NCBI RefSeq assembly: GCF_001316005.1
Contig: NZ_BBBJ01000006.1
Span: 1-64,000, forward strand
Direction of reading: 5' to 3'
DNA: 64,000 bases
Source of the DNA: Vulcanisaeta distributa JCM 11217
Lineage (GTDB): Archaea > Thermoproteota > Thermoprotei > Thermoproteales > Thermocladiaceae
Position numbers and translations under genes: made by a program. Of the stretch, positions 1-64,000 are shown one piece after another. Positions within the stretch are counted from its first letter, which is position 1; each line of letters starts with the position of its first letter. The notes below the pieces were generated by a model. That model worked only from the letters and a program-made list of their open reading frames with translations. It did no database searches and was not told where the DNA came from.

Positions 1-961
1 AGGATAAGGGTGGTTTAGCAGCTATTGTGGAGTTGATTAGGGAGTCCACGTGGCCCATTATAATGACTGCGAATAATCCATGGGATCCCAAGTTCAGGGA
101 GTTGAGGGATGAGGCTGAGGTTATTCAGTTGAAGCCTCTTGATGAGGGTGATATAATGACTATACTAAGGAGGATATGTAATGCTGAGGGCATTAAGTGC
201 GAGGAGGATGCGCTTAAGCTTATTGCAGAGTCATCGGGTGGTGATGTTAGGGCCGCAATAAATGATCTTCAGGCTGCCGCTGAGGGTAAGAAGGTCTTGA
301 CCAAGGATGACGTCACAGTCACCGAGAGGGCGCATCAATATGATATGTTTAAAATTCTCGATAAGGTATTCCACGCAAGGAGGTTTGAGGAGGCTAGGTC
401 GGTCACCTTCCTGCCGAGTTTTGACTGGGAGAGTTATTACCCATGGGCGCTGGATAACATACCATCCGTATACGCAAAGTCTATTGAGGCTGTCAATGAG
501 GCTCTCGATAACCTATCCCTCTCAGACGTGGTTAAGGGTAGGATCGCAAAGACCAGGAGTGGGAGTTGATGCCTTACATGCTTGAGTTGATGACAGCCGG
601 GGGGGTAGCGCTAGTGCATAATAAGCCCCCGCTTGCTAGGTTTGTTAGGTTGTCATTTCCTGAAAGGATTAGGTTATTGGCTAAGACCAAGGAAGTTAGG
701 CAGATGAGGGATGCCCTGGTTAATAGGCTTAGGACTGAGCTCCACGTTAGTAGCTCTGAGGTCTCACTATACTACATGCCACTACTCAGGATAATGGCGA
801 CAAGCGACGTATTTAAGAAGAAACTTCTTGAACGCCTAATGAAGATAATGGGCTACTCACTGGAGAGTGTTGAGAAGACCCTCGGCATTGAGGAGGTGAG
901 CACAGGTGGCGAGGGTGAGAGGGCTAAACGTGAGTCGGCGAAAAGATCCAGGGGGGGGTAA
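1..961 (+). CDS. rfcL: Replication factor C large subunit, 3' part, frameshifted
   Basis: RfcL is the large AAA+ subunit of the clamp loader that opens PCNA and loads it on primed DNA. The window begins inside the ATPase domain: from base 3 one reads DKGGLAAIVEL, then the sensor stretch IIMTANNPWDP, the lid (VIQLKPLDEGD) and the collar domain (LMPYMLELMTA, KPPLARFVRLSFPERI). The first frame stops at 567-569, but homologous sequence resumes one frame over from about 554 (QEWELMPYML), so one base is missing near 552-554, probably a C of a CCC run. The G7 run at 599-605 gives MTAGGVALV; from memory of the family one glycine is usual. The stop at 959-961 directly follows a G8 run. The N-terminus lies before the window. 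Family call is firm; the break looks like an indel error. Confidence 0.9.
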
Positions 962-965
962 TTAC

Positions 966-1139
966 GTGGCAGCAATGGACCTGGAGACCTATGAGTCATT
1001 AAGTCAATTAATCAATAAGTTAGGCCTCAATGCCGAGTTCATGGGCAACGTAGTGGTGGTTAGGGACAAATCATGGAGCCGAATCTATAAGTTGGTGAAT
1101 AAAGCCCGTGAATTGGGTATTAACGTGAATGAGGATTAA
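966..1139 (+). CDS. Small hypothetical protein downstream of rfcL
   Basis: A short reading frame of about 57 codons follows rfcL within 5 bases and is probably co-transcribed. GTG at 966 is 8 bases after a purine-rich G8 run that could serve as ribosome binding site; ATG at 975 is the alternative start. The product (MDLETYESLSQLINKLG..) looks like a compact alpha/beta fold, with two amphipathic helices around a VVVVRD strand. I do not recognise the family. Its last 20 bases overlap the end of the convergent TRIC gene. It could also be an rfcL tail if the G8 run has the wrong length, but it does not resemble a PCNA-binding tail. Confidence 0.45.
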   Translation: MAAMDLETYESLSQLINKLGLNAEFMGNVVVVRDKSWSRIYKLVNKARELGINVNED

Positions 1140-1803
1140 CATCATGCCTAACATTCTTCACGTCTCTCGCTGGTTTATACGGCGATAGGTGTATCGTCAC
1201 GTAGGCCCTGTCTAGACCCCTCATTATTATTATGAACCTGGTAATCACTATGATAATGGCTGTAGCCAACACCGCTGTCTCACTCCCCAGCATCGACCTA
1301 AACACGAGGTATATCGCACCACCAAGTACGGCCACCGTTGCGTAAATATCACGCCTAAATATTGTGGGTATTTCACCGGCCAGTACGTCCCTGACAACAC
1401 CGCCACCAGCAGCCGTGACTGCCGCCATCAATACCACACCAAGAACGTTAAGTCCATGTTCAGCCGCTACCTCAGCGCCCACGGCGGAGAATGTGCCTAG
1501 GCCGATTGCGTCGGCGTACATGAGGGCATTCCTATACCTGGAAATGCATGGGTAGAATACGTAGGCTGCTAATGACGCTACTATAGCCGTTACTGGATAA
1601 GGTAGGTAAACGATGTTTGTTGGTGGGAATACGCCAATGAGGACGTCCCTAATTATACCGCCGGCTAAGGCCACCGAAGAGCCAAGAACGATGCCACCCA
1701 GTATATCCAGGTTCTTCTCATATGCCTTAAAGGCGCCTGATGCCGCGAACGCCACTATCCCAATATAATTGAATATATTTATTAATAGACTTACGAGACC
1801 CAC
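1120..1803 (-). CDS. TRIC-type cation channel family membrane protein (UPF0126)
   Basis: Membrane protein of the prokaryotic TRIC/UPF0126 family, trimeric channels for monovalent cations. Two repeated glycine-rich halves are visible, each with the GGxxRD signature: ALAGGIIRDVLIG and TAAGGGVVRDVLAGEIP, on about seven hydrophobic helices. The frame is open back to 1854, but GTG at 1803 fits the family start (LLINIFNYIGIVAFAASGAF) and has a TATA-like element 17-30 bp upstream. The C-terminal 30 residues are charged and not conserved in the family. The gene is intact and convergent with the small gene after rfcL. Confidence 0.85.
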   Translation of the reverse strand: MGLVSLLINIFNYIGIVAFAASGAFKAYEKNLDILGGIVLGSSVALAGGIIRDVLIGVFPPTNIVYLPYPVTAIVASLAAYVFYPCISRYRNALMYADAIGLGTFSAVGAEVAAEHGLNVLGVVLMAAVTAAGGGVVRDVLAGEIPTIFRRDIYATVAVLGGAIYLVFRSMLGSETAVLATAIIIVITRFIIIMRGLDRAYVTIHLSPYKPARDVKNVRHDVNPHSR

Positions 1804-1819
1804 GGAAGACGAAGCACGT

Positions 1820-1833
1820 ATTAAGTATTTAAT
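1820..1833 (-). promoter_or_regulatory. TATA-like box A for the TRIC channel gene
   Basis: ATTAAGTATTTAAT, almost self-complementary, lies 17-30 bp upstream of the GTG at 1803. That is the usual place for an archaeal TATA box in a leaderless transcript and is the main reason for choosing this start. Confidence 0.45.
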
Positions 1834-2197
1834 TCTAACTATCCATTTAATCAACTCTGCTTTAGGATAAGCACGCCTCGGGATCCCTAACCCTCACGGC
1901 CAACGTCTCCCATAGTACAAAGCCATGGGTCCCATTCTCAGGACCTAGATACGTTAATGCCGTATCGACGCCCATAGTTAAATTGATGCGTGAACAACAA
2001 TAATGCTGTATCGTCTCTTAGGCTGAGGAATAATGATTATGTCCTTAACTAAGGATTTAATCCTTGTTAATTACGTGATGCTTGTTCTTTCAATAATCGT
2101 TAGAAATCATAATTAGTATGGGGGGGTTAAAGCTCAATGCTAATTTCAATGAAATTTAAACTTAAGCTTATTAAATAGTAATTTACTTTAGCAGTTC
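1834..2197. other. Gene-poor divergent intergenic region with a short orphan frame
   Basis: About 360 bp between the TRIC gene (minus) and the molybdopterin oxidoreductase (plus). On the minus strand 1862-1975 holds a 37-codon frame with protein-like composition (ALTYLGPENGTHGFVLWET), perhaps the tail of a decayed gene, as stops close the region upstream. A G7 run sits at 2120-2126. The AT-rich stretch 2150-2185 is a plausible promoter for the gene starting at 2198. Nothing else is recognised. Confidence 0.4.
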
Positions 2198-2865
2198 GTG
2201 ATCGATACAGCCGATGGTATTTTTAAGACCGCATTGAGTAGGCCGTGCGATAAATTATTTTATAGGCGTGAATTACCACCGAATCAGAAGGTCATACCTC
2301 GTTTCATAATATATGATGTTTACGACCCTCCCCCAGGGTATTGATATATTCAACTACAAATTAAGGGTGGTGGGGGGGGCTCGTTGAGAGAGGTTGAGAT
2401 ACCGTATATAGACCTAATCACGAAAGCGCCTGTGTAGATCTAATCGCTGATTTCCACTGTGTCACTGGCTGGAGTGTGCTTAACGTGGAATGGAGGGGTA
2501 TACCAACCAAGTACTTAATGGATATGGCTAAGCCCAGGGGTAGTTACGTAATGGCTGTGGGCATTGATGGTTATACCACGAATCTACCATTAAATGCGTT
2601 GCTTGAGGAGACAACAATAATTGCCTACGCAATGAATGGGAAAATACTACCTAGAGAGCATGGTTTTCCACTGAGACTTGTTGTGCCGTCGCGCTACGGT
2701 TGGAAAAGCGCTAAGTATCTTAGTGAGTTAATTGTCATGGATAGTAATGAACCGGGTTATTGGGAATTACTTGGTTACCATGATAATGGTGATCCATGGC
2801 TTGAGGAGAGGTTTAGCGAGGGTGAACCAGTAACTATGAGGAGGAGGGTTAGGATTGTGAGGTGA
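2198..2865 (+). CDS. Sulfite-oxidase-like molybdopterin oxidoreductase, broken in three places
   Basis: Member of the sulfite oxidase/YedY fold family, which binds molybdopterin. From GTG 2198 the N-terminal PRFIIYDVYDPPP motif is read, then IDIFNYKLRVVGG, then REVEIPYIDLITKAP, then the Mo-ligand segment DFHCVTGWSV (the cysteine), and finally WRGIPTKYLM, LPREHGFPLRLVVPSRYGWK and YWELLGYHDNGDPW. Frames change near 2338, at the G8 run 2372-2379 and near 2433. No transmembrane partner gene is adjacent. All conserved blocks survive in order, so indel errors are as likely as gene decay. The DUF89 gene follows 6 bases later. Confidence 0.75.
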
Positions 2866-2870
2866 TTGTG

Positions 2871-3742
2871 ATGGGTGGCCCATGGTACGTAAGCGTTGGT
2901 GACTGCCTGCTCTGCGTCCTTGAGTCCAGGTTCAGTGAGTTGAGGAGACTTGGGATTAACAATGCCAAGCCATTTATTGAGTTGGGTAGGGTCGTGATGG
3001 ATTTAGCACCACTGGTAGAGCAACAGTGTTTATTGAATCATTCAATTACTTAACTAAGTCCCTGGGCATGGTCGACCCACACGGTGATGAGAAATCAATG
3101 CTTGAGAAAGTTGCGGGCGAATTAATTAGTAGGTTAGGCCTTGGCGATGATGTTATTAATTATGTGAAGCTCGCGGCCTCTGCGAACTCCGTCGATATAC
3201 CAATGAGGGGGGGTTACGACTTTAGCATCGATGATTTTGTGAGGAACATACTTGAGGAACCAACTTGGTTAGGTACTAATCCCGAGGATCTAAGGAGTAG
3301 ACTTAACCATGCGGGGGGGAGTATTGCCTACCTAGTTGATAATGCTGGTGAGTTTCAGTTTGACTTGCTACTCATTAGGAGGTTATCCTCAATGGGTATT
3401 AAGGTCGTGGTATACGCGAGGAATAAGCCGTACGAGGTTGACGTTGCGCATGACTACGTCACTAGTAAAGTAAGAAGCGTGGGCGCAATGGCTAAGGCAT
3501 TGCCAGGGGGGGATTACTCAGCCTTTTGGTATGATGATGTGGTGAGGGAGTTAATGGGCTATGACCTAGTTATTTCTAAAGGCCTTGATAACCTGGAGAC
3601 CTTTATGGAGAGAAGGCCAGGGCTCAATAACGTGCTTTTCCTATTTAGGGCTAAATGCCCATTAATAGCTAAGTTACTAAATGTTAATAAGAACAAGCCG
3701 GTCATTTTAATGGGGGGCCGATATTTTAAACGCCCTGTTTAA
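2871..3742 (+). CDS. DUF89/ARMT1-like damage-control phosphatase, frameshifted
   Basis: Metal-dependent phosphatase family that removes harmful phosphometabolites. The N-terminus has the CLLC motif and the core shows YLVDNAGEFQFDLLLIRRL, the Asp-Asn metal-binding signature, followed by VVYARNKPYEVDV and DLVISKGLDNLE. The frame breaks near 3020-3026: the first frame ends after VEQQ and the second resumes with VFIESFNYL, consistent with one lost base. G7 runs at 3207, 3313 and 3506 each code Gly-Gly. The usual archaeal length, about 290 aa, matches the joined frame. Confidence 0.8.
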
Positions 3743-3745
3743 TCA

Positions 3746-5640
3746 TCAACCGTAATTAATCAATGCATTAGTCCCGGCATTAATCATTATGGAGAGCTGT
3801 ATCCACAAACCATTACTCAGATAAAGCCTACCACTCAACGCTGGCATGTACGTAACCATTAAACGCCCGGTACAACTTACCGTCGTTCCCTGCGAAACCT
3901 CGACACCGCCCGACCCACTCAGGCTAGACACTCCAGTAATTACGCCATTACTAATAGACAGCCCTAATTCAAGGGCTCCCTGAGAATTAGCCTTCACCTC
4001 AATGGCGCTGGAGAACGTGCATGTCAACCCACCAATGCTGAACCCACTTATGTATAGGCTTTCCTGCGTTGGATTCGTTACGTTTATAATCAATTCAGCA
4101 CTCCCATTAGAACTTATCGACAATTCACCACTTGCGCTAGGACTATCGTTACCCAGCCACCCATTGGTACGTATGTGTGAGGTCCCACGGGTATTCCAAG
4201 GCAGCCAGCGACTAATGATGGTGTCGAATTAATGACGCTTCTTAAATACTCATTTATTAGGGCTTGGGCTCCATCGGCGTTAATGTCCCGTTAAACATCG
4301 CCCTGAGTATTGAGGTTAAATTACCTATTATACTGCTGTTAAGCCTCACATAGCACAACATGGGTGTTGCACCGCCAATCCCATACTGCCTCGCTAGGCT
4401 CCAAATGGTGGAGTTTACATAAGTTAAGTAATTCCTTGTTGAGCCCATGACCCAAATCGCGTAGTAGGACTCCCTCTCATAGCTTTGGATCCTTGATTCG
4501 CATTGATTCAGCACCTGCCTTATTAACGTGGCATTACCACTACTGAAGGCACTAATCAACTCAGACCTGCACTGTAGGTATTGATTGAGTACGTACGGTG
4601 TTAAACTCGGTAAGCCAGAACTATTTAATACCTTAATTATGTTAGTAAACCTCGTAATCACCGCCTGTGTGACATTTGTTTCATTGACTAGCATCCTAAC
4701 CTGCCCTAGGCAGGCTATGTAACTATTAACGAACTCGTTAGCCTCAACATACACCTCAGGCTCGCTCAATGACCCATTTATCAACGGCATCAACGTCTCA
4801 TTAACCTCACCCATGCACTGCATATAGCTGCGGCATTGGCATCGTAGTGTTCAACATCGTCGATAGTTGATTAAGGGCCCTCGAAACATTCCTACTTAGT
4901 AATGCGATATAAGGCATTACCACCCGCGTTATCATGTGGGCCCTTACACTCGGAGGCGTCAATAATGAGATTGTTATTATCTCAAGCTTAATAATAATTA
5001 ATTGTTTAGTTGTTGAGTTAAGCCCGGCACTCATTAGCTCGTTGTACGCCGTGTTCAATACGTTAATTGCCGTATTTAAGCCCAGGAGGGCGCTGGGCGG
5101 TACATACGGATATAGGCACCTCTCCTCATTACTAAGTATTGCCACGCTCATGCTTGCTAAGTACGTGGCATTACTACTACTCCTCAATGCTGATAAAGCC
5201 CTTAATGTGAAGTTGGCTATCGTCTCATTACTTACTAAATTACTAGTTACAGTGCTATTCATGGCTGATGCCAATGAAGTGTAATTATTAATAACCGCCT
5301 GAGTTGAATTAATACGCGCACTAGCCATCAACTGGGCGGCTAGGTTAATGGCGTTGTTTAGCGTGATAATGGCCTCCAGGTAATTGCCAGCGTTGGCGTA
5401 GGACTTAGCCTCATTAATTAACTCAATAACCGCTGTTGAATTGATACCACTTGCATTCAGAGCCCCCCCAACCCAGCGCTCGGCTATGATTAAATGAACG
5501 TAGTAAGACGCAACAAGGCCCGTGGCACTAACATTCCCATTAGCGCTGGCTGAGGAATTAACTCCCTGGGCATGTAAAACAGAGATGCTCATTATAACCA
5601 GTAAAGCGATCCCCACTGCGAGGACTATTGGTGATCTCAT
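3746..5640 (-). CDS. Secreted N-glycosylated surface protein, frameshifted
   Basis: About 630 residues when joined. It begins with a signal peptide (MRSPIVLAVGIALLVIM.. ending near LHAQG) and then a Ser/Asn/Thr-rich, mostly helical ectodomain with dozens of N-x-S/T sequons; the last third (SISSNGSAELIINV, YMPALSGRLYLSNG) is beta-rich. No C-terminal membrane anchor is seen. Frames change near 4815, near 4257 and near 4165, the last between WLGND and SPSASGELS. No family recognised. It is probably an exported cell-surface or S-layer-associated protein. Confidence 0.6.
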
Positions 5641-5797
5641 CAGAATTGAATTTAAGAAATAGAGATATTTAAGGAAGCACCCGTGGAAAGACCGTGAAAA
5701 GCCAGAAATACCGCATTTAAATGTTGCAAATAGACGAAAAGACCGTAACCAACACCATTACAATACAATATTCACATCCTCAGCAATGAATGGTTGG

Positions 5798-5899
5798 AGC
5801 CCCCCCGGCCGGGATTCGAACCCGGGACCTCCCGCTTACGAGGCTTGCACGGGGCCCTCGCCCCCCCAGGGCGCTCCGACCGGGCTGAGCTACCGGGCT
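5798..5899 (-). tRNA. tRNA-Thr (CGT) with an intron in the anticodon stem
   Basis: On the minus strand the D arm (GCTC..GAGC), T arm (CCGGG-TTCGAAT-CCCGG) and anticodon loop CTCGTAA (anticodon CGT, threonine) are clear. The 3' stem half GCGGG pairs perfectly only if CCC at the end of the D-arm side joins GC before the loop. That places a roughly 24-nt intron, beginning TGGGGGGG, at the non-canonical position 29/30. The 3' acceptor strand contains a G7 run (plus 5800-5806) where G3 or G4 is needed to pair. With G4 the stem would be CCGGGGC and the discriminator U, as expected for archaeal tRNA-Thr, but the 5' strand then lacks one C. Confidence 0.8.
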
Positions 5900-6035
5900 G
5901 AGCAATTGCTGCGCCGCATGAGTTTTAAATTTTTCGTGAGTTATCCCTTATCGGTCATTTAATAATATTTGGTTAGTGGCTTACGGTCGCTATTGCTGAT
6001 TTTTAGTATTGATACCATGTCTCTACTTTGTTTAT

Positions 6036-6701
6036 TTAAAAGCCTTGACTAGACATTATATCCTCAACTGCCTGGTTAAATAGGTAACCTATTTCGTGAA
6101 TCTTAACGGTATCCTCATGCCTAGGCCTCATTACTGTGGCTATGTAAACTCCATAGTCCGAGTGATTGCCCTCCTCCGGCCCCCCCTGTGGATTCCCGTA
6201 GGGTGAGAACAGTATTATGTGGGTTATGTCACTCCTCATAATTAAAGTTCTCAATGCTCTGTCGAGTTGATTGTATATTTCGCACTTAAGTTGTGGCTTT
6301 GCGTGCAGGAACCTATCAAGCGCATTTATTGATGCTATTACGGGCTTCGTCTGCGCCTCGGCTATTATAGTGCTTATTACATTATTTATTTCCGTTGCTG
6401 GATCCACTTCCTGGCTCATCCTAATGCTGTACCTGCCGTAGGTTGGGTCCGTTATTGGTATGTTTATTAGCGACGCCCTAGTCAATTTAACGAGCGGTGA
6501 CTGCATTGGGTCTATGTTTGGTATCTCCTTTACTGGTTCCATCATTAACACAGACCACCATGACCTGTCTGGGTATTGCGGTTTTCTATTCTCCGTAACA
6601 CCCCTCTCTATCGAGTTCATTAATGATAGTAGGAAGTTTGTTTCGCACTCCATGAATCCTTGATATTCAAGCCCTAAGACGCCTAATAATATTGGCTGCA
6701 T
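6036..6701 (-). CDS. Hypothetical protein
   Basis: An intact 221-residue frame, function not recognised. The N-terminus (MQPILLGVLGLEYQGF) resembles the first strand of alkaline-phosphatase/phosphodiesterase superfamily proteins, and the C-terminal HSDYGVYIATVMRP segment faintly recalls their late His motif, but the metal ligands of that family cannot be placed. One C7 run (6180-6186) codes Gly-Gly within NPQGGPEEG. The gene stands alone between tRNA-Thr and truD. Confidence 0.5.
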   Translation of the reverse strand: MQPILLGVLGLEYQGFMECETNFLLSLMNSIERGVTENRKPQYPDRSWWSVLMMEPVKEIPNIDPMQSPLVKLTRASLINIPITDPTYGRYSIRMSQEVDPATEINNVISTIIAEAQTKPVIASINALDRFLHAKPQLKCEIYNQLDRALRTLIMRSDITHIILFSPYGNPQGGPEEGNHSDYGVYIATVMRPRHEDTVKIHEIGYLFNQAVEDIMSSQGF

Positions 6702-6770
6702 CCTGTTGCGTCACTGCTTTGCCTTTAATATCATTTCTTTGTCATATTTATGACTTAATAATGAGACAAT

Positions 6771-8135: not shown

Positions 8136-8171
8136 TTTTACTAACCCGGCAACAAGGAACGTAGATTTAAA

Positions 8172-8471
8172 TCACTTTATAAGGCATTCATTCATTAACT
8201 CAGTAATGCCCAGGTAAGTCTTATCAACGCAGTACTGACACACAGTCCTGCCAACCCTATTACCCACTATCTCCACATAACCAAGCTCCTCATGCCTAAC
8301 CCATCGGCCGCACACCGAACACCTCCTAAGCCCAAGTAACCTATTTACCTCACCAACTATTTCAGATGCCTCATTATTTACTAAGACGTGCTTCTCACCA
8401 TTTATTGAGATCACCGCAATGACTAATCCCCCCCTAACCCTCATCAGTGAAAGTTTTCTGAATTTACCCAT
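8172..8471 (-). CDS. Small zinc-ribbon protein
   Basis: 99 residues starting at ATG 8471. Two CxxC pairs (CSVC and CQYC, about 26 residues apart) form a likely zinc ribbon in the C-terminal half; the N-terminal half is a short beta-hairpin region (GLVIAVISINGEKHVLV). It lies just upstream of truD in the same direction. Its target is unknown. The C7 run at 8428-8434 codes RGG. Confidence 0.55.
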   Translation of the reverse strand: MGKFRKLSLMRVRGGLVIAVISINGEKHVLVNNEASEIVGEVNRLLGLRRCSVCGRWVRHEELGYVEIVGNRVGRTVCQYCVDKTYLGITELMNECLIK

Positions 8472-8550
8472 CAATTAACTACTCTCTCTGCGATTAATAA
8501 ATTACTTCCAGGCTTATGTATACACCAGGTAACAGAGCTAACTAAAACTT

Positions 8551-9465: not shown

Positions 9466-9480
9466 GCGATATTCCTTATT

Positions 9481-9502: not shown

Positions 9503-9509
9503 GCTGTGT

Positions 9510-21512: not shown

Positions 21513-22934
21513 ATGCCTAGGTCAGCAGCAGACTACATAAACTCGGTTAGAGATGGCAGAGTTGTTTATTACAGGGGGGGTAAGAGGGTTGATGATATAA
21601 CGACGCATCCAATCATTAGTATAGCCGTTAAGCATGCGGCTGACCTATTCGATGTTAAGGATAGGCTTTATGATGACCCTAATTATGGTCGTATAAGCAG
21701 GTACTTCAAAGTTCCTAGGAATACGAATGACTTACTCGAGAGATACAAGTTAATTTATGAGGATACCCTTAGGTTTGACGGACTATTTAATATAGTTCAG
21801 GCAATAGGTAGTGACGCGCTCTTCTCATTGATGATAGTGGCTAGGAAGGTTGATAGGAAATATGGCACTAATTATTATGACAGGGTAATGAAGTACTACG
21901 AGTATGTTGTTAAGAATGACCTGGCGATAGCGGTTGCTCAGACCGACGTTAAGGGTAATAGGGCGAAGAGACCCCATGAGCAGGAGGATAGGGATATGTA
22001 CCTTAGGGTTGTTGAGGTTCGTGATGATGGTATTGTGGTTAATGGCGCGAAGATACACACTACGCAGGGGGGGCCTGTGGCTAATGAGATAATTGTACTG
22101 CCATACAGGGCCATGGTTGAGGGTGATAAGGATTACGCCGTTGCTTTTGCTGTGCCTGCTAACACGAAGGGTCTCAAGTTCATTGTTAGGCCTGTGCTTG
22201 AGTATGATGGTAATCCAAACGCTGTTAATGCGGCGAGTAGGTTTGAGGTTGAGTCATTGACAATTTTTGATCATGTGTTCGTGCCCTGGGACAGAGTATT
22301 CATGTTCGGGGGGGAGTGGGACTTGGCTGGGCAGTTGGCTTGGACCTTCGCAACTTATCATAGGTTCACGGCAATATCGTATAGGGCGGCCACGGCTAAT
22401 TTATACCTGGGCGCCGCACTTTATGCTGCCAGGGCTAATGGGATTGAGAATGCGCCACACGTTAGGGATTGGCTAGTTCAGATGATTATGTATAAGGAGA
22501 TAATGAGGATGGGGGCCATGGCGGCCGCCCTGGAGCCCTGGATTGACGAGGGCATTGCAGTACCAAACCCCCCCGTATACACAAACGTAAGTAAGCTGTA
22601 CGCTAATGCCCACTTCATAGACGTGGTGCATGGGCTCATAGACATTGCAGGCGGTTTAATAGCCACAATGCCATCACACGATGATTACATAAACCCAGAG
22701 GAGAGACAATACATTAGTAAGTACCTCAGAGGCGCGGTTGATGGTGATACGAGATATAAGATAATGAGCCTGGTCAGGGAATTAGGCGCGAGCCACCTAA
22801 TGGGTTACCTATTAACGGCCATGATACATGCGGAGGGCTCCGAAGCAGCGAGTAAGATAGGAATGCTGAGGGAATACAATTATAAAGAAGCAGAAGAATT
22901 AATAAATAAAGTATTGAGTAAAATAAAACTTTAA
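21513..22934 (+). CDS. 4-hydroxybutyryl-CoA dehydratase homologue lacking all cysteines
   Basis: 473 aa, intact, of the 4-hydroxybutyryl-CoA dehydratase / 4-hydroxyphenylacetate monooxygenase family (acyl-CoA dehydrogenase-like FAD fold). Recognised by DDITTHPIISIAVKHAA, LAIAVAQTDVKGNR, the HxxQGGPV region and LAWTFATYHRFTAISYR. The [4Fe-4S] enzyme needs three Cys and one His; here the His of ATYHRF is kept but the Cys seven residues later is Tyr, and the whole protein has no Cys. This matches the second, cluster-less paralogue known in crenarchaea using the 4-hydroxybutyrate cycles; its role is unproven. Five 7-base G/C runs inside the gene stay in frame; a sixth lies 14 bp upstream. Confidence 0.85.
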   Translation: MPRSAADYINSVRDGRVVYYRGGKRVDDITTHPIISIAVKHAADLFDVKDRLYDDPNYGRISRYFKVPRNTNDLLERYKLIYEDTLRFDGLFNIVQAIGSDALFSLMIVARKVDRKYGTNYYDRVMKYYEYVVKNDLAIAVAQTDVKGNRAKRPHEQEDRDMYLRVVEVRDDGIVVNGAKIHTTQGGPVANEIIVLPYRAMVEGDKDYAVAFAVPANTKGLKFIVRPVLEYDGNPNAVNAASRFEVESLTIFDHVFVPWDRVFMFGGEWDLAGQLAWTFATYHRFTAISYRAATANLYLGAALYAARANGIENAPHVRDWLVQMIMYKEIMRMGAMAAALEPWIDEGIAVPNPPVYTNVSKLYANAHFIDVVHGLIDIAGGLIATMPSHDDYINPEERQYISKYLRGAVDGDTRYKIMSLVRELGASHLMGYLLTAMIHAEGSEAASKIGMLREYNYKEAEELINKVLSKIKL

Positions 22935-27299: not shown

Positions 27300-29113
27300 T
27301 TATTTTGATGAACGCTTAATTTTCAGTATCTCCTTAAGTAGGGCTATTTCGTCCTCCGTTAACTGATCCTTGAACTGTGTCATTAGCGTTATCGCGTGTT
27401 CCTCAGGCACGTCAACGTATAACTCATCACCCTCCTTAATCTGCCTACCAACCATTATGTTACCCTCTATAGATATTGCAACCTCCATACCCTTCTTAGC
27501 CTCTGGTATGTTCTTACCCTTATCCTGAATCTGCATTATCGTGCCCACCTCCTACCATCACCCCCCCTAATCAGTGGGTATCCAGGCTTTATCAATCCCT
27601 CAAGCACGGCAATACCAACAATGACCGGATTACTCCTCCTGAATACATAGCCAGGGAGTATCCTTATCTTCCCAGGCCTTATGTACTTATCAAGCTCCAT
27701 CTCAATGAGCTTCGTCTTCTGCTCCTTATACCACTGGGTGAATTCCTCGACGAGTCTATACAGGATCTCATTCCTAAATATCTTCACCCCCCCATACTGC
27801 ATGGCCTCTACCTCGACCTCATGAGGAACCTTAACGTTGAACGCCAGGACAACGCCGTAGAGCGGGTTCTTCTTCCTGACTATAGAGGCCTCGACAACGT
27901 CCCTCCTACTTACATTACCAACATCAGCCTTTCTAACGGGTATGCCCTGACTCCTGAGGTAGATGACCATTGCCTCAAGGGTACCCAATGTATCGGCCTT
28001 GGCAATGACACCCTCCTTATCAGTCTCAATCTTAACCTCCGAAACCTCCTCCTTAACCAACTTCACGTACTCATCCAGTGAAGCCTCTTGAGGAACAACA
28101 AAGACAGGCGCGCCTGGGACGACTTGGTCAAGGCCATCGGCGATTATCTTGACGCCAGCCGCGGCCTTAACCTCGTCCATAAACATATATCTATCCTCAG
28201 GATCCCTCATCTCGTCAAGCGGCTTTGGCATGACGAGCATCTTAACCTTAGTGCTTACTGGGCCCTCAAGCCCTGCCGTAACTATTAAGTCTCCCTTCCT
28301 AATCACCCCCCCATCATAAAGCACGACATCTGCCGTGGCACCCCCCCAACCCTTCTCCTCCCTAATCTCCATGACTACGCCCTTACCTGGCCCATACGTA
28401 ACCCTCAACTTCTCCCTATTAAACCTCTGGCTTAAACCAGCAAGTACAACTAATAAGTCGGCTAGTCCCTCGCCGGTGACCGCACTCGTGGGTACAATAG
28501 GCACTTGCGTATTAAAGTCCCTAACCCTGTCATACCTGTCTGCGTCCATACCTAGTTTATTGAATTCCTCGATTATCCTCGCAATCGCCTCCTCAACCCT
28601 ACCCTGAACATCCTCCCTCTGCTTCTCGTATGAATCAAGAAATGGCGCATTCTCATGAGGTTCCCAACCATATATCCTATCGAGCTTATTAGCCGCAACA
28701 ACAAACGGTATATTCCTAGATCTAATTAGGGTGAGACTCTCGTAGGTCTGCTCCTCAAACCCCCCCTTTGTAATGTCTATAACTAACACGGCTAAGTCAG
28801 CCACGGAGCCGCCCCCCTACGCCTCAGGTTTGAAAAGGCTGCATGACCTGGGGTATCCACCATGAGGAAGCCCTTAATCCATACCTTACCCTTAAGCCTA
28901 AACTTCGTGAGCAATGGGTCGGCTATTTTCTCCACGGCGCTCCAGGGTATGAATGATAGGCCTATGTGCTGCGTTATCATGCCTGGCTCCCTATAGGCCA
29001 CGAAGGTCCCCCCTTATCTTGTCAAGGAGTAGTGTCTTGCCTACATCGACGTGACCAACAACTACGGTGATTGGTGGTCTGTAATCCATTAATGATGCAT
29101 CAACCTTACTCAT
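27300..29113 (-). CDS. infB: Translation initiation factor aIF5B, frameshifted
   Basis: GTPase that joins ribosomal subunits at initiation. Order: P-loop [18 protein letters not shown] (start ATG 29113), [13 protein letters not shown] (switch 1), [32 protein letters not shown], beta domains and the C-terminal [17 protein letters not shown]. Three breaks: C6 29008-29013 (RGTFVAYR expects G5), C6 28812-28817 ([11 protein letters not shown] expects G4), and near 27547 (DGRRVGTI lacks one G of GGG). Several Gly insertions sit at C7 runs, e.g. TKGGFEEQ and [10 protein letters not shown]. Joined length of about 600 aa is right for an essential gene. Confidence 0.95.
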
Positions 29114-56471: not shown

Positions 56472-56514
56472 CAATTCTGCGTTAATTTTAAAGTAAAATA
56501 GTTTTTCCGTGTTG

Positions 56515-57623: not shown

Positions 57624-57679
57624 AATTAACTGTGGGCACCTTAACTTATAAGTTATGATTATTACTTATTCAGTTAAAC

Positions 57680-57873
57680 TTATCGGGCCTTAACCTGCTC
57701 AAATATTGTGTAACCGCACTTACCGCAAGCCCATCTAGGCACTGGGACTTTGTGATAAGCCATTACTGAGCCGCACCTTGGCAAATTCTCCTAAGAAACT
57801 TTATGGTACCCTTCTCATAATCAACTTCATACCACGTGTGCGCCCTTGCCTTAACCTCCTTTGGCACAGTCAT
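57680..57873 (-). CDS. rps27ae: Ribosomal protein S27ae, frameshifted
   Basis: Small 30S zinc protein. ATG 57873 starts [20 protein letters not shown]; then [16 protein letters not shown] and [15 protein letters not shown] give two CxxC pairs. The frame shifts near 57785: the second residue after the first Cys lacks one C of CCC (ICQGAAQ-stop in the uncorrected frame). Stop at 57680-57682. It was identified by hand because the frameshift leaves only short open frames. Confidence 0.85.
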
Positions 57874-57927
57874 GGCTTAACGCATCCCTTATAAAGATTT
57901 TTCCTTCGTCGCGGTGGGTCATAAAAT

Positions 57928-57936
57928 CCTTATAAG
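57928..57936 (+). promoter_or_regulatory. TATA-like box for the C/D sRNA candidate
   Basis: CCTTATAAG lies about 25 bp upstream of the proposed 5' end of the sRNA at 57957, the distance expected for archaeal TATA-dependent initiation. It gives independent support to the RNA call. Confidence 0.4.
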
Positions 57937-57956
57937 GAACTTGCTGATTTACTGCT

Positions 57957-58012
57957 TGCGATGATTGATGTGGCCAGGGCTGAGCCGTGATGTAAGGTCT
58001 CCCTTCCTGATT
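57957..58012 (+). ncRNA. C/D box sRNA candidate
   Basis: Between rps27ae and the glycosyltransferase gene. C box ATGATTG (57961-57967, imperfect), guide, D' box CTGA (57980-57983), C' box GTGATGT (57987-57993, one mismatch), guide, D box CTGA (58007-58010). Spacing of both guides is about 12 nt, which is right for archaeal 2'-O-methylation guides, and a TATA-like box precedes it. Targets were not searched. Confidence 0.55.
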
Positions 58013-58013
58013 C

Positions 58014-59234
58014 TCACCACTGCGACACCCACTTTGTATTTTCATACTCCTCAAGTACGTCTTGGTAAACCTTCTTAGTCCAGCGGGCGATCCTATCCCA
58101 GGTATACCACCTGAGCACGGAGTCTCTCGCATTCCTTGCTATGTTTCTCCTCAACTCATCATTACTGAGTAGTATCTTGGCGGCATTTATTATCTCATCA
58201 ACGTTATTAGGCGCTACCTTAACGCCGTTGTACCAATCACGCACTATCTCATCAGGTCCGCCAATCCTCGTCGTGATTACGGCCAAGCCCGCGGCCATGG
58301 CCTCGAGTATTGTTATTCCAAAGGGCTCATACCTACTTGGCAGTATTGCCAGGTCTGATACCTTCAATATTGAGTAGAGCGTCTCATCATCAACCCTACC
58401 CGTGAAGTATACCTTATTCCAAATGCCCCAGTCATGGGCCAGTCCCATTAAGTACTCCCTCATTGGACCATCACCAACAATAAGAAGCTTCAGGTTCCAA
58501 TCCCACCTCAGTAATTCCTTAAATGCCGCCAGTACTAGGTCAGGCCCCTTCTCATGAACAAGCCTACCAACGAAGACTATTATCTTCTCACTGGGCATTG
58601 CGTATAAATCCCTAAAGTCAGGCCTCACACTTACCGAGTCTATGTAGGACACGTCAATGCCGTTGGGTATCATTATCAGTTTATCCTTTGGTATCCCATG
58701 CACCATCGAGACCTCGCTCATCATGTAATTACTACAGACAATAACCTTCCACGCCTCGTAAGTCGTCCTCCATTCCCACGAGTGTATTATGAATTGCTCC
58801 TCATTATGGATCCCGCCGCGCCTACCGGCTTCGGTGGCGTGTATCGTGGCGATTAAGGGCTTATGAAGTAAATGCTTTAACGCAATGCCTGCGGGCCCTG
58901 TTAGCCAGTCATGAACGTGTATTAAATCGAACTCCCACTCATCATAGAGCCTGAGGGCCTCCTCAATCATCTCCTCGTTGAAGTTTAGAACCCACGTGAT
59001 GAAGCCCGTGGACCTGAACCTGAATGGATCAACTCTCCTAACATGGACTCCCTCAACCTTCTCGGAAGACGGTGAGCCGGGTAGCGCTATGCTCATTACG
59101 GTGGTATCAACGCCATCCTTAACCAAGTGCCTGGTAATATGATAAACATGCCTTCCCAACCCACCGACCATGTGGGGGGTGGGTATTCCCAGGATAGGTG
59201 GAGAACGCGAATTACCACGGGTATAAATTCCCAT
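58014..59234 (-). CDS. GT4-family glycosyltransferase, glycogen-synthase-like
   Basis: 406 residues, intact. PHMVGGLGRHVYHI near the N-terminus (acceptor glycine loop), FDLIHVHDWLTGPA, IPNGIDVSYID, FVGRLVHEKGPDLVL and the donor-site signature LPSRYEPFGITILEAMAAG. This pattern is close to the archaeal glycogen/starch synthases and sucrose-synthase-like GT4 enzymes, so it may elongate glycogen. No branching or debranching gene is nearby. The 3' end faces the sRNA candidate. Confidence 0.88.
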   Translation of the reverse strand: MGIYTRGNSRSPPILGIPTPHMVGGLGRHVYHITRHLVKDGVDTTVMSIALPGSPSSEKVEGVHVRRVDPFRFRSTGFITWVLNFNEEMIEEALRLYDEWEFDLIHVHDWLTGPAGIALKHLLHKPLIATIHATEAGRRGGIHNEEQFIIHSWEWRTTYEAWKVIVCSNYMMSEVSMVHGIPKDKLIMIPNGIDVSYIDSVSVRPDFRDLYAMPSEKIIVFVGRLVHEKGPDLVLAAFKELLRWDWNLKLLIVGDGPMREYLMGLAHDWGIWNKVYFTGRVDDETLYSILKVSDLAILPSRYEPFGITILEAMAAGLAVITTRIGGPDEIVRDWYNGVKVAPNNVDEIINAAKILLSNDELRRNIARNARDSVLRWYTWDRIARWTKKVYQDVLEEYENTKWVSQW

Positions 59235-59303
59235 ACTTATTTAAAAGTAAGATTCTACGATAAGTAAGCGGGTAAGCAACCGTGTAATAAAATTTAAAAT
59301 TCA

Positions 59304-59921
59304 ATGGGAATAACTTACCGTGTGAAGATCGTACTTGTTGCCGTACCTGGCAGTGGTAAGTCAACGACGCTGAAGTTCGTTAAGGAGATGCTCCCTGACA
59401 TAACCATTGTTAACTACGGTGATTACATGCTTGAGATTGCCAGGAGACAGTACGGAATTACCAATAGGGATGATATGAGGAAGAAGTTACCTGTGGAGGA
59501 GTATAGGAAGGTTCAGGAGCTCGCGGCTGAGGAAATCGCTAAACTACCTGGGGATGTGATCATAGATACTCACGCAAGCATTAAGGTTCAGGGAGGGTTT
59601 TACCCAGGCCTTCCTGACAGGATAATAACTAAGCTCAAGCCAGATGCCATAGTCCTCATGGAGTTTGACCCAAAGGACATACTTGAGAGGAGGGCTAAGG
59701 ACGTGGGTCTTAGAGATAGAGAGCAGGAGTCGCCTGAGGATATTGAGATGCATCAATTAGCCAATAGGTACTACGCCTTCGCTGCGGCCAACGCAGGTGA
59801 GTGCTCCGTGTACATACTGGACTTTAGGAAGAAGCCTCAATCAAGGCCCTTTGAACATGCCGAGATTGCCGCGAGGTTCATCGTTGATTTAATACTGAGG
59901 AATAGAGGTGCTAGTAAGTAA
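59304..59921 (+). CDS. adkA: Archaeal adenylate kinase
   Basis: 205 residues, intact. P-loop VLVAVPGSGKSTTLKFV, VIIDTHASIKVQGGFYPGLP (AMP site), LMEFDPKDILERRAKD and the lid segment REQESPEDIEMHQLANR. Typical trimeric archaeal adenylate kinase, making two ADP from ATP and AMP. ATG 59304. No long G runs. Confidence 0.93.
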   Translation: MGITYRVKIVLVAVPGSGKSTTLKFVKEMLPDITIVNYGDYMLEIARRQYGITNRDDMRKKLPVEEYRKVQELAAEEIAKLPGDVIIDTHASIKVQGGFYPGLPDRIITKLKPDAIVLMEFDPKDILERRAKDVGLRDREQESPEDIEMHQLANRYYAFAAANAGECSVYILDFRKKPQSRPFEHAEIAARFIVDLILRNRGASK

Positions 59922-59977
59922 AGTCATTATCAAGGCGCGAAATGCTTAAAATAGTATGAGGTTTCTCGAAGGGTTGT

Positions 59978-60502
59978 ATGAAGGCCTTAATCATAGTTGC
60001 CGATGTATCGTATAAGGGGGGGAGTACTCAATGACAGTACAGGCACTTAGGCAGTTGGGTATGGAGGTTAGTACTGGGTTGGTAAGTAAGACTGCCGATG
60101 TTAATTTCGACATTGATCTAACGGATAAGTTTAGTGAGGATGTACTTGATGGTTACGATGTCGTAGCTTCATAGGTGGTTATTGGGCCTACTATGCCGTT
60201 ACCGGTAAGGAAATCCCAGGTAGAGTCAAGCCCATGGTTAATAAGGAGGCCTTCGAGAAATTACTTACGCACTCAATAAATAGTGGTAAGAAGACAATAC
60301 TTCCCTTGGCAACTCCAGCTATGCAGCTAAGCTTGGCTTGTTAAGAGGTAGGAAGGCGACGGTATACCCAACCACGGATTTAATAAATATTCTCAGGAAT
60401 AACGGCGTTGATTACGTGAATGAGGATTTCGTAATCGATAACAACGTTGTAACCCTTAAGAGGATGGCCGTGGAATTCCTTACCAAGGCCCTTAGTAAGT
60501 AA
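59978..60502 (+). CDS. DJ-1/PfpI-family protein, heavily frameshifted
   Basis: MKALIIVADVSYKG starts at 59978, then after G7 60016-60022 SMTVQALRQLGMEVSTGLVS, DVLDGYDVV, after a shift near 60166 FIGGYWAYYAVTGKEIPGRVKP, and after shifts near 60310 and 60325 KLGLLRGRKATVYPTTDLI and ITLKRMAVEFL-like tail. The family's nucleophilic Cys should follow the glutamate-containing block; it is not obvious here because the elbow segment LPLATPAY lacks Cys. Length fits, about 170 aa. Four frames in one small gene. Confidence 0.6.
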
Positions 60503-60601
60503 TCATTATCCTAGAATTGCTAACTTAATAGATTGAGTATTTCCCTGACTAAGAATAAAGAAATAATTTAAATTTATCCGCATGCCTCGTCTATATTAAT
60601 A

Positions 60602-61684
60602 ATGGCTTCGACACAGCGTAAAGCATTGGAGATGTACGAGATTCCTCGGGTCGTGGTATTCGGACCAAACGCCATCAGTAAAGTACCCGAGATATTAAGT
60701 AAGGTGGGGGGGCTTAATGGATTAAGGGGGGGTTTAGTCCTCATTGGTCCTCACTTCGGTAAGCACTTAATTGATAAAATCGAGTGTAGGACCTGCGATG
60801 TTGAGGAAATTGATGAAATAAGTTCCGATAGGATCATCGAATTATCGAGTAGGTACGCCCACATTACTGATTATATAATAGCCCTCGGTGGTGGTAGGAT
60901 AATTGACTTTGGTAAGGCCATGGCGTACATCATGAATGTACCCTACGTATCAATACCAACAATAGCATCCCACGATGGCATAGCGAGCCCCTACGTATCT
61001 CACGTACTTCAACTCGATCTTAATAAGCATGGAGTTGGTAAGGTTCAGAGGTCGCCAATAGCTATTATTGCCGATACGTCAATAATACTCGAGGCGCCAA
61101 GGAGGTACTTACTGGCTGGCATTGGTGAGTTGGTTGGTAAGTTGATAGCCGTTAAAGATTGGGAATTAGCGGTTAGGGTTAAGGGTGAGGAGTTCAGCGA
61201 GTATGCGGCGGCCCTCGCCAGGGATAGCGCATTAATAGTCCTTAGGAATAGGGATAGGCTAAAGGTCCATAGTGAGGAGAGTGTTAGAATAGTGGTGAAG
61301 GCTTTGCTCGGCTGTGGGGTTGCGATGGCCATTGCCGGCAGTTCAAGGCCGTGCAGTGGTTCCGAGCACTTGTTCAGCCACGCAATAGACCTGTTAGCTA
61401 GGGAGAGGGGGGGGTTTAGACCCGCACTGCATGGTGAGCAGGTGGCGCTTGGCGCGATAATGATGGCCTACCTACACGGTATGAAATGGAGAAGGATTAA
61501 GTCATTCCTACAGAGCCTAAACATACCGGTTACGGCTAAGGAACTCGGTCTTGACAGAGACGTAATAATTGAGGCATTAACGATCGCGCATAACGTGAGA
61601 CCTGATAGATTCACCATATTAGGGGGGGCGGGCTTGACGCGCAAGGCAGCTGAGAACGTCGTTGAAATTACGGGTGTTGCCTAA
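60602..61684 (+). CDS. egsA: Glycerol-1-phosphate dehydrogenase
   Basis: Makes sn-glycerol-1-phosphate, the backbone of archaeal lipids. 360 residues, intact. VVFGPNAISKVPEIL, ALGGGRIIDFGKAMAY, SIPTIASHDGIASPY (Zn ligand Asp), SGSEHLFSHAIDLL and ALHGEQVALGAI (His ligands). G7 runs 60706, 60726, 61622 and G8 61407 stay in frame, giving SKVGG, LRGGLV, ILGGAGL and RERGGFR; the extra glycines are not typical of the family. ATG start after an AT-rich promoter. Confidence 0.93.
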   Translation: MASTQRKALEMYEIPRVVVFGPNAISKVPEILSKVGGLNGLRGGLVLIGPHFGKHLIDKIECRTCDVEEIDEISSDRIIELSSRYAHITDYIIALGGGRIIDFGKAMAYIMNVPYVSIPTIASHDGIASPYVSHVLQLDLNKHGVGKVQRSPIAIIADTSIILEAPRRYLLAGIGELVGKLIAVKDWELAVRVKGEEFSEYAAALARDSALIVLRNRDRLKVHSEESVRIVVKALLGCGVAMAIAGSSRPCSGSEHLFSHAIDLLARERGGFRPALHGEQVALGAIMMAYLHGMKWRRIKSFLQSLNIPVTAKELGLDRDVIIEALTIAHNVRPDRFTILGGAGLTRKAAENVVEITGVA

Positions 61685-61690
61685 CGCGGA

Positions 61691-62582
61691 CTAAATGACC
61701 CTAATCAATACGTAGCTAAACACGAGACCAATAATTATCGATACTATGAAGCCAAGTATTAACTCGTTGAAGTACCTCAGGTTTATTATCCTAAACCTAT
61801 GAGCTGCCCCCCCGACACCCACTAAGCCGAAGGACGTGGTTACCGTGACAGGCATTGGCACTGAGTATATGGTCCCGATTTCCATGGCCATGAATGAGAA
61901 TAACTGAACCGTGAAGCTGGTTAAAGGACCCAGCGTGAATAGGCCTGTGCTGAGTCTATACAGTGTTCTCCAACCAATTAGTAATACGCCAAGTATTGAA
62001 CTAATGATAATAAGCAATAACCCCTTATAACTAAAGTTTAGTAGTGCCCATAGTAACCCAAGGTTATTTGCACCGAAGGAGAAGGATAGCAGGAAGACTG
62101 TGAGTATGGATAATACGCGGTAAATGCCCACGTACCTAAACGATAATCTCGAGAGGGCGCCTAGGGATTTATAGAGAATGTATGAAAGAAGCATAACGAT
62201 TATGGGCAGGGACAACCAATAACTAAGTACGAAGACCGCGTTCCTCAGCACACGCCCCAACGCCAGCGAGGCACCCACTAGGCTTGCGTATAAGGAGCCT
62301 GTTAGTGACATTGGAACCCTCATGCTTTCGCCGACTATGAATATCACTATGGTAACGGCCATGGCCACCATGCAACATCGCCACTCACCACATTAGCCTC
62401 ATGTAAGTACCTTGCAGCCATAACCCAAGTACATAGCCAAGTAATGCAATTACTACGGCGTACTTATAATCAATTGACTTGGAACCAACGGCAGCACCAG
62501 CGTTGGCTGATAGGTTATTTCCAGAGACTAGGAACGAAAGCGAGAATGCCAAAGCGTAATTTATAAACAGCGTATACGCCAT
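61691..62582 (-). CDS. PiT-family inorganic phosphate transporter, frameshifted
   Basis: ATG 62582 begins MAYTLFINYALAFSLSFLV, then the PiT signature NNLSANAGAAVGSKSI and later SFGANNLGLLWALLN as its second copy, on about 10 hydrophobic helices. These GANxxxN repeats mark the Pi:cation symporter family. The frame shifts near 62380 (YMRLMW/MVAMAV). The C7 run at 61807 gives VGVGGAAHR. It converges on egsA with 6 bp between stops. Confidence 0.82.
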
Positions 62583-62632
62583 ACTAGGCGGGTATGACCC
62601 TTTAATAGCTTTTAAACTCAACCTACGTACTA

Positions 62633-63419
62633 TTATCGCCTCAAATCATTAATTATTAACTCGGCAACCCTCTTACCACTCATTATCATTGAGCCGAATA
62701 TAGGCCCCCATCCTCGGTAGCCCATACACGGCAGCAACCGCCATACCCGTCACGTAAAGACCCTCCATAACCCTACCCGTGTACTTAACGACTAAGTCCT
62801 CGGCAATCGAGGCATACGCCGACTTCTCACCAGGCACCTTTAAGCCAAGGTCTGGGTTTTTCCTCGCGGCCACCGTCACGACCTCGGCATCATGCCCTGT
62901 GGCGTCGACTACGGCCCTAGCCTCTATGAAGAATGGGTCTGTGTGTATGTTAGCCATTTGTATTGATGACCAGTAAACAGCGAGACCTGCTATTCTCGGG
63001 GGATTATCCCTAATTATGACATCCTCAACGTTAATTCCAAGCAAAAACTTAGCGCCTGCATCGATGGCCCTAGTTGCGAGTTTTGCCATCATTTCGGCAG
63101 GGTCAATGGTGAATAACCCATCACCCATGTCCTGAAGCCTAACGCCGAAATCCTCGCTAAGGATCTCAGAGGCCGGGGTCTCAATGACTATGCTCGGTAA
63201 GTGGCTTGCAGCACCGCCAATACCACCACCAAAGGAAAACCTCCTCTCAAGCACCACGGTCTTTAAACCAGCCCTCGCCAGGTAGTAAGCCGCCGTCATG
63301 CCCGATGGACCAGCGCCAACAATAGCCACATCAACGCTTGAATACTCATCAAGTATTTTCAGGGCACTCCTTATTATTGCACGGGTAATGCTCGACTCCG
63401 AGATTGATACGCCCGCCAT
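62633..63419 (-). CDS. thi4: Thiazole synthase Thi4 (sulfide-dependent type), frameshifted
   Basis: Builds the thiazole of thiamine from NAD and glycine; also annotated ribose 1,5-bisphosphate isomerase. Start ATG 63419. AIVGAGPSGMTAAYYLARAG (dinucleotide binding), FGGGIGGAA, FTIDPAEMMAKLA, and VDATGHDAEVV are readable. The active site NIHTDPF has His where the sulfur-donating Cys of suicidal Thi4 enzymes sits, so free sulfide should be used. The last 20 residues (MGPIFGSMIMSGKRVAEL) need G4 at 62706-62710, but G5 is read. The ThiR-like gene lies in this window. Confidence 0.88.
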
Positions 63420-63548
63420 ACAATCACCAAATTATTATTCATAAATAAACAAGTTATAAATTAATTCCCCCCCTTATTAACTAATGACCTGCCCAAAGCC
63501 CGTGAACTTAAAACAAAACAAAACCCACAGGAACTAACACCAGGGTGG

Positions 63549-63626
63549 CGCCCCCCCGGCCGGGATTTGAACCCGGGTCTGCGGCTCGACAGGCCGCCAT
63601 ACTAGACCGGGCTATACCACCGGGGC
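63549..63626 (-). tRNA. tRNA-Asp (GTC), acceptor stem disrupted by G7
   Basis: Minus strand: acceptor GCCCCGG, D arm, anticodon stem-loop GCGGC-CTGTCGA-GCCGC with anticodon GTC, T arm CCGGG-TTCAAAT-CCCGG, then CCGGGGGGGCG. The 5' strand pairs with CCGGGGC, and G73 is the Asp identity discriminator. The actual G run (plus C7 63551-63557) is 7 where 4 is needed, three bases too long. No intron. Confidence 0.9.
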
Positions 63627-63806
63627 TACGTAGTGATTGGCTTTGTTGAGAATTTAAGTTTTTTGCCCTGATTGTTTGTTGGCGCCGTGCTAGGAGACTT
63701 CTTATTATAGTTATTATGGATTTAAATGCGGTGTTGCGTCTGCATTTCCTGTCTAATTATTGACTGAGTAAACGCTTTAAATTGGCAGTTCCCCCCCGCC
63801 TTAGGT

Positions 63807-64000
63807 ATGGCGGTGAATAATATGAATAGTAACATGGGTGATAAGGAGGATGAGGAGTTGAGCAAGTTATTAGAGAAGAAGGCTAAGGAGTTGGCTAGGG
63901 CTGTGGGCAATGAGCCTGTTGAGTTAAGTGCTGATAGTTTTGACGATTTCATAAGGAGTAGGAGGGTTGTGGTTGTTGATTTCTGGGCGCCTGGTGTGCA
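63807..64000 (+). CDS. Thioredoxin-like protein, 5' part
   Basis: Starts at ATG 63807 with a charged N-terminal extension (GDKEDEELSKLLEKKAKELARA) before the thioredoxin strand VELSADSFDDFIRSRRVVVVDFWAP. The active site should read WAPWC; the sequence has WAPGV, consistent with a T missing before GGTGTGCA at 63990-63994, so a frameshift sits at the redox centre. The C7 run at 63791-63797 lies just upstream. Cut by the window end. Confidence 0.8.
   Translation, partial: MAVNNMNSNMGDKEDEELSKLLEKKAKELARAVGNEPVELSADSFDDFIRSRRVVVVDFWAPGV

What the first reader, a model, noticed from the sequence alone, without database searches (positions are those of the whole stretch)
1..64000. G/C homopolymers of exactly 7 are enormously over-represented
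Counting by eye gives about 118 runs of exactly 7 G or C, about 12 of 8, about 5 of 6, and none of 9 or more. A random sequence with this composition should have only two or three runs of 7 and more runs of 6. The runs occur in genes, intergenic DNA and tRNA. Candidate causes: a base-calling or assembly artefact; slippage toward a preferred length in an organism without mismatch repair (Pyrobaculum aerophilum has been reported to have unstable G/C runs); or a functional motif.
Basis: seen in the sequence. Interest (0 to 1): 0.85.

Follow-up and report, generated by a model that had tools for sequence, protein, structure and literature searches.

The report
Sequencing artefact: G/C runs lengthened to 7
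The striking excess of seven-letter G or C runs is very probably a sequencing error in this draft genome, in which true runs of four were written as seven, and not a property of the organism's DNA.

Summary
In detail: 117 G/C runs of exactly 7, 13 of 8, 6 of 6, none longer, with runs of 4 and 5 depleted and A/T runs normal. It holds across the genome (3,857 exact G7/C7). It is very probably not biology. Of 405 genomes of the phylum counted, three show it: this one, one congener and one genome of another genus in the family. The other 10 genomes of the genus have 0-5. Aligned to six relatives, 72 of 81 informative runs of 7 replace stretches of 4 bases, and 4 of 4 informative runs of 8 replace 5. 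The change falls inside this genome's 23S rRNA (16 of 22 informative runs of 7 are runs of 4 in a relative) and in the window's tRNA-Asp, where one acceptor strand has G7 and its partner CCCC. The affected congener is V. distributa JCM 11216, NZ_BBBI01; BBBK01, a draft of V. souniana, is reported as Ion Torrent PGM, while the Illumina + Nanopore genome of V. souniana has 5 such runs. Best explanation: an Ion Torrent run-length overcall at true G/C length 4 or more. The platform of this assembly is inferred.

The parts
1..64000 (.). 117 G/C runs of exactly 7 and 13 of 8, scattered through the window; runs of 4-6 depleted
   Evidence: genome-wide counts
21513..22934 (+). 4-hydroxyphenylacetate 3-hydroxylase-like gene (HpaB_N + HpaB): matched stretch 12 bases longer than in G053, G054 and G058 = four runs, each lengthened by 3
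   Evidence: Pfam; 1,419 against 1,407 bases matched (1,404 in G059 and G061); alignment
21574..21580 (+). G7 where G053, G054 and G055 have G4 (G052 has GAGG and no long run)
22067..22073 (+). G7; codon alignment implies a true run of 4 (GGA or GGT of G053, G054, G055 is GGG here); G052 also has 7
22308..22314 (+). G7; codon alignment implies a true run of 4 (AGG of G052 and G055, AGA of G053 and G054, is GGG here)
22568..22574 (+). C7; codon alignment implies a true run of 4 (CCA of G053, G054, G055 is CCC here); G052 also has 7
63551..63626 (-). tRNA-Asp (GTC) whose 3' acceptor strand reads GGGGGGG opposite a 5' strand with CCCC: three surplus Gs by reading of the stem

Best explanation
A systematic sequencing artefact. 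Where the real DNA has a run of four or more G (or C), the signal-to-length step of the sequencer, or its flow-space consensus, often wrote a run that is too long, usually by three. True 4 mostly becomes 7; true 5 becomes 7 or 8; true 6 becomes 7 or 8. Runs of 3, and A/T runs, keep their length. The platform is most likely Ion Torrent PGM in the JCM (Japan Collection of Microorganisms) draft-genome series. Shown: the length rule; its occurrence in rRNA and tRNA; its absence in 10 of 12 genomes of the genus, one of them sequenced by Illumina + Nanopore; its presence in JCM 11216. Inferred: that this assembly belongs to that series, that its reads were PGM reads, and that the fault lies in homopolymer calibration rather than in the assembler.
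For: Site lengths against six relatives (modal length of the replaced stretch, two identical flanking bases required; G058 and G061 cover only about 18 and 9 kb of the window): of 117 runs of 7, 36 had no usable relative; of the other 81, 72 replace 4 bases, 5 replace 5, 2 replace 6, 2 replace 7. Of 13 runs of 8, 9 were unusable and 4 of 4 replace 5. Of 6 runs of 6, 3 were unusable; 2 replace 4 and 1 replaces 5. Own 23S stretch (C10:1-2500) against G053: 36 runs of 7, 14 without matching flanks (some lie beyond the gene); of 22, 16 are 4, 4 are 5, 1 is 6, 1 is a substituted 4; runs of 3 keep length 3 in 83 of 84 informative, 77 of them as the same run. G048 16S is 1,580 against 1,506 bases in G049; of its 22 runs of 7, 6 lacked flanks, and of 16, 10 are 4, 4 are 5, 1 each a substituted 4 and 5. 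tRNA-Asp: partner strand 4, this strand 7. 15 of 29 tRNA matches of this genome read hold a G/C run of 6 or more (37 were found; 30 fetched; one, cut by a contig end, not counted). 3 of 405 genomes affected. PMC9872577 (whole text): V. souniana draft BBBK01 is Ion Torrent PGM; the complete Illumina + Nanopore genome has 2,432,148 bp, the length of G054, which has 2 + 3 runs. G055 and G056 (JCM 14467, JCM 16159; platform not seen) show a smaller shift of the same kind on A/T.
Against: The accession and platform of this assembly could not be read: no record of the window's own genome was returned. The error is not obligatory: 72 runs of 4 remain, and 45 of the 47 informative ones replace 4 bases; no rule was found for which are hit. 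It is not an exact rule either: of 13 informative window runs of 5, 8 replace 4 bases and 5 replace 5. Two informative runs of 7 replace 7 bases. tRNA-Asp is still recognised by Rfam and ARAGORN, so the damage to its stem is read from the sequence, not tested. Low completeness is not specific: G056 (63%) and G057 (54%) are low without the peak. Raw reads were not available.
Confidence: 0.96

Rival explanations
1. Real expansion by replication slippage toward a preferred length of 7 in an organism without mismatch repair.
For: No MutS_V match in any of 12 genomes of the genus. In coding DNA the usual change, 4 to 7, keeps the frame.
Against: 10 of the 12 genomes of the genus equally lack MutS_V and have 0-5 runs of 7. 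rRNA and tRNA are changed in ways expected to damage them. A slippage equilibrium should give a smoother spread, not 6 runs of 6, 117 of 7 and none of 9. Expanded sites hardly agree between G000 and G052 beyond the base rate (19 of 24 against 11 of 16; small numbers, no test run). Non-coding sites show the same 4 to 7 (4 of 4).
Confidence: 0.02
2. A functional G7/C7 motif or G-quadruplex element.
For: Number and scatter; archaeal G-quadruplex surveys mention Thermocladium modestius JCM 10088 for such sequences (PMC7565180 and PMC8044849, passages only).
Against: The runs replace ordinary stretches of 4 in genes, non-coding DNA, rRNA and tRNA, and 10 congeners lack them. The three species named in PMC8044849 are called evolutionary distant there, and each bears a JCM number.
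Confidence: 0.01
3. An artefact, but from another platform or step (for example 454, or a faulty polishing or conversion step), not Ion Torrent base-calling.
For: Platform of this assembly not seen; the step from 4 to 7 is larger than the usual one-base homopolymer error (recalled).
Against: The neighbouring accession series BBBK01 is reported as Ion Torrent PGM, and BBBI01 shows the peak.
Confidence: 0.2

Closest known systems
Homopolymer length errors of flow-based sequencing (Ion Torrent PGM, 454)
   Same: Confined to homopolymers, length only, G and C alike; PMC3283564 mentions hand-checking for homopolymer indels from 454 data (passage).
   Different: The usual error is plus or minus one base (recalled); here the jump is usually three, starts sharply at true length 4, and touches G/C only.
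Unstable G/C runs of Pyrobaculum aerophilum
   Same: G/C runs in a MutS-less relative of the order (recalled).
   Different: Three genomes of a same-order genus, g6 (taken to be Pyrobaculum by inference), show smoothly falling run counts, 4 > 5 > 6 > 7, with no peak at 7 (G064, G066, G072; 20-60 kb each).
[quoted passage not shown]
   Same: Long G runs scattered up to several hundred times; all three are JCM strains, as is V. distributa JCM 11216; possibly the same artefact (inference).
   Different: Those genomes were not identified or examined here; the paper gives n > 7.

Membership tests
Flow-sequencing homopolymer artefact | Run length differs from independently sequenced relatives while flanking bases agree | tested here: met
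   72 of 81 informative runs of 7 replace 4 bases; 36 more had no usable relative
Flow-sequencing homopolymer artefact | Hits every sequence class, including rRNA and tRNA | tested here: met
   23S of this genome, 16S of G048; tRNA-Asp
Flow-sequencing homopolymer artefact | Follows the sequencing batch and not the phylogeny | tested here: inconclusive
   3 of 405 genomes, in two genera, with unaffected sisters; but the record is known only for G052, and its platform only by the neighbouring BBBK01
Flow-sequencing homopolymer artefact | The assembly was made from Ion Torrent or 454 reads | not testable with these tools
   record of the window's genome not returned
Slippage in a mismatch-repair-deficient lineage | No MutS | tested here: met
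   0 of 12 genomes of the genus match PF00488; control rings in 11 of 14
Slippage in a mismatch-repair-deficient lineage | Relatives with the same deficiency share the pattern | tested here: not met
   10 of 12 genomes of the genus have 0-5 exact runs of 7
Slippage in a mismatch-repair-deficient lineage | Long runs avoided where they break function | tested here: not met
   23S rRNA and a tRNA acceptor strand affected

The most novel reading that the evidence does not exclude
Something in the native DNA of these thermophiles, such as a base modification or a very stable G-tract structure that survives library preparation, makes runs of four or more G/C give an abnormal signal on one platform, so that the artefact would report a real chemical property of G tracts. 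The Illumina + Nanopore genome of V. souniana, which shows no lengthening, does not rule this out, because its chemistry differs.
Probability: 0.02. Interest if true: 0.5.

Novelty: not a real feature. Interest (0 to 1): 0.07.

Why it matters
It matters as a warning. Three public genomes of this family have thousands of G/C runs that appear lengthened by about three bases: one surplus residue per site in many proteins, and frameshifts expected where 5 or 6 become 7 or 8. Their rRNA genes are hard to recognise: the 23S search found nothing in G052 and G048 and only pieces in this genome, against one full match in each of 4 unaffected relatives, though contig breaks may share the blame. Thermocladium modestius JCM 10088 appears in a table of G-quadruplex sequence densities (PMC7565180), and PMC8044849 reports unexplained G-run repeats in three distant JCM strains; the words artefact, artifact and sequencing error do not occur in the main text of PMC8044849. 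Affected genomes should be left out of analyses of G runs, repeats, slippage or protein insertions.

Tried and rejected
Slippage without mismatch repair, and functional or quadruplex motif: rejected on the rRNA, tRNA and congener evidence. Sequence context: base frequencies six positions either side of the runs show no strong motif for the runs of 7; the base just after is T somewhat more often (0.54, against 0.39 after runs of 3 and 0.43 after runs of 4). Exact +3 rule: not exact, since in rRNA true 5 becomes 7 as well as 8, and true 6 becomes 7 or 8. Selection for frame as the source of +3: rejected because non-coding sites (4 of 4) and rRNA show the same change. Literature: nine searches. 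In what was listed (20 of 638 papers, 20 of 88, full lists in the others) no title or abstract start describes this artefact; two searches found 0 papers. That the Torrent base caller applies homopolymer recalibration from length 4 by default is recalled and was not confirmed.

Faulty or rough steps. In one search three of eight rows (G058, G061, G056) were given in the wrong orientation and are not used. One search aligned a 16S in the wrong orientation and was repeated correctly. In one search stretches of one genome were joined without a spacer for run counts (at most three junctions per genome). The coding/non-coding split is crude (stop-to-stop frames of 100 codons or more in relatives). 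The minimum-energy fold of tRNA-Asp printed is not a cloverleaf and is not used.
Full report
Observation. The count is right: 117 G/C runs of exactly 7, 13 of 8, 6 of 6 and none of 9 or more, against 72 of 4 and 22 of 5; A/T runs fall off normally. Two features were not in the finding. Runs of 4 and 5 are depleted about four-fold against an order-2 Markov model, and the sum of 4s and 7s here (189 in 64 kb) is close to the number of 4s alone in relatives (125, 193 and 194 in 60 kb of G053, G054 and G055, 239 in 80 kb of G056). The runs of 7 look like displaced runs of 4. The pattern covers the genome: 2,031 + 1,826 exact runs in 2.08 Mb, and 243 of 7 in 120 kb taken from contigs C1-C5.

Who has it. 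Exact G7/C7 counts were taken in 81 genomes of the class and 398 of the phylum, 405 distinct genomes by handle. Three stand out: G000 (this one; 3,857), G052 (same genus; 4,803) and G048 (another genus of the family; 7,958). The next highest is G197 with 340. The other 10 members of the genus have 0 to 5. In the genus of G048, G049 has 43 and G050 has 119. The affected genomes have estimated completeness 67, 67 and 47%, but some unaffected congeners are as low (G057, 54%; G056, 63%).

Site by site. Each run was compared with the aligned stretch in six relatives without the G/C peak, requiring two identical bases on each side (two of the six cover only about 18 and 9 kb of the window). Of 117 runs of 7, 36 had no usable relative. 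Of the other 81, the replaced stretch is 4 bases in 72, 5 in 5, 6 in 2 and 7 in 2. Of 13 runs of 8, 4 were informative and all replace 5 bases. Of 72 runs of 4, 47 were informative and 45 replace 4. Of 22 runs of 5, 13 were informative: 8 replace 4 and 5 replace 5. Of 6 runs of 6, 3 were informative: 2 replace 4 and 1 replaces 5. A replaced stretch of 4 is often not itself a pure run in the relative, because of ordinary substitutions; counting pure runs only, window runs of 7 are 4 in 12 of 13 cases against G053 and 20 of 21 against G056. The HpaB-like gene at 21513-22934 shows it plainly: 1,419 matched bases against 1,407 in three relatives, with four runs of 7, each explained by three extra bases.

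The deciding test. Genes for structural RNA have no reading frame to protect and little tolerance for insertions. The partial 23S gene of this genome (contig C10, bases 1-2500) was aligned to G053. Of 36 runs of 7, 14 lacked matching flanks (some lie beyond the gene); of 22, 16 are 4, 4 are 5, 1 is 6 and 1 is a substituted 4. Runs of 8 (7 informative of 15) replace 4, 5 or 6 bases. Runs of 3 keep length 3 in 83 of 84 informative. Runs of 4 that were left (11 informative of 14) replace 4 bases in all 11. G048 16S is 1,580 bases against 1,506 in G049, with insertions of 2, 3, 4 and 6 bases that by eye lie at G/C runs, and one single-base deletion; its 10 informative runs of 4 are all 4 in G049. 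No 16S was recognised in G000, perhaps because its 23S begins at a contig end. In the window, tRNA-Asp ends in GGGGGGG where its own 5' acceptor strand has CCCC, although Rfam and ARAGORN still recognise it. Of 29 tRNA matches of this genome read, 15 hold a G/C run of 6 or more. It is hard to see how a living cell could carry all of this (inference).

Batch, not lineage. The announcement of the complete V. souniana genome (PMC9872577, whole text) says that its draft BBBK01 was made on the Ion Torrent PGM. The complete genome, from Illumina and Nanopore, has 2,432,148 bp, the length of G054, and G054 has 5 such runs. G055 and G056, from JCM 14467 and JCM 16159 (platform not seen), lack the G/C peak but show a smaller shift of the same kind on A/T: of their A/T runs of 7 with usable flanks, 5 of 8 replace 6 bases in G053 and 4 of 4 replace 6 in G054. 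PMC8044849 (passages) reports up to several hundred scattered G-run repeats in three distant archaea, all JCM strains, one of them Thermocladium modestius JCM 10088. G048 may be that species, but this was not tested.

Against mismatch-repair loss. MutS_V has no match in 12 of 12 genomes of the genus, control rings in 11 of 14, so its absence cannot set the affected genomes apart. Three genomes of a same-order genus (G064, G066, G072) show smoothly falling G/C run counts with no peak at 7. Sites expanded in G000 are expanded in G052 in 19 of 24 comparable cases, and sites not expanded in G000 in 11 of 16; shared inheritance should have made these differ more, though the numbers are small and no test was run.

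Mechanism. The error is a step: length 3 is right, and lengths of 4 or more of G or C are often overcalled, usually by three (range one to four). It is not obligatory: if 4s and 7s are pooled, 72 of 189 were left at 4. This fits a fault in converting flow signal to run length above a threshold, specific to two nucleotides. Shown: the step, its base specificity, its spread over genes, non-coding DNA, rRNA and tRNA. Inferred: the platform for this assembly, and whether base-calling or flow-space consensus is to blame.

Verdict. An artefact, with confidence 0.96; Ion Torrent PGM as its source about 0.8.

Noticed in passing
L083-L089 (G056, JCM 16159; G055, JCM 14467): A/T runs of 6 are scarce and runs of 7 or 8 in excess (6 against 18+1 in 80 kb of G056; 2 against 7+3 in 60 kb of G055); of runs of 7 with usable flanks, 5 of 8 replace 6 bases in G053 and 4 of 4 in G054. 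A related overcall, for A/T and starting at 6.
   Followed up: partly
G000:C10:1-2500 (L094): The 23S gene of this genome begins inside the molecule close to the end of the contig, and no 16S was recognised in the genome; a contig break, the lengthened runs, or both may be the cause.
   Followed up: partly
window 27536-28804: IF-2-like open frame looks cut at both ends: the GTPase profile matches only from position 92 of 188, starting at residue 1, and the last domain only to position 39 of 86, as expected if indel errors split the gene.
   Followed up: no
papers PMC7565180, PMC8044849: Thermocladium modestius JCM 10088 appears in a table of G-quadruplex sequence densities, beside other JCM strains, and G-run repeats are reported in three distant JCM strains; possibly the same artefact (passages seen).
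   Followed up: partly
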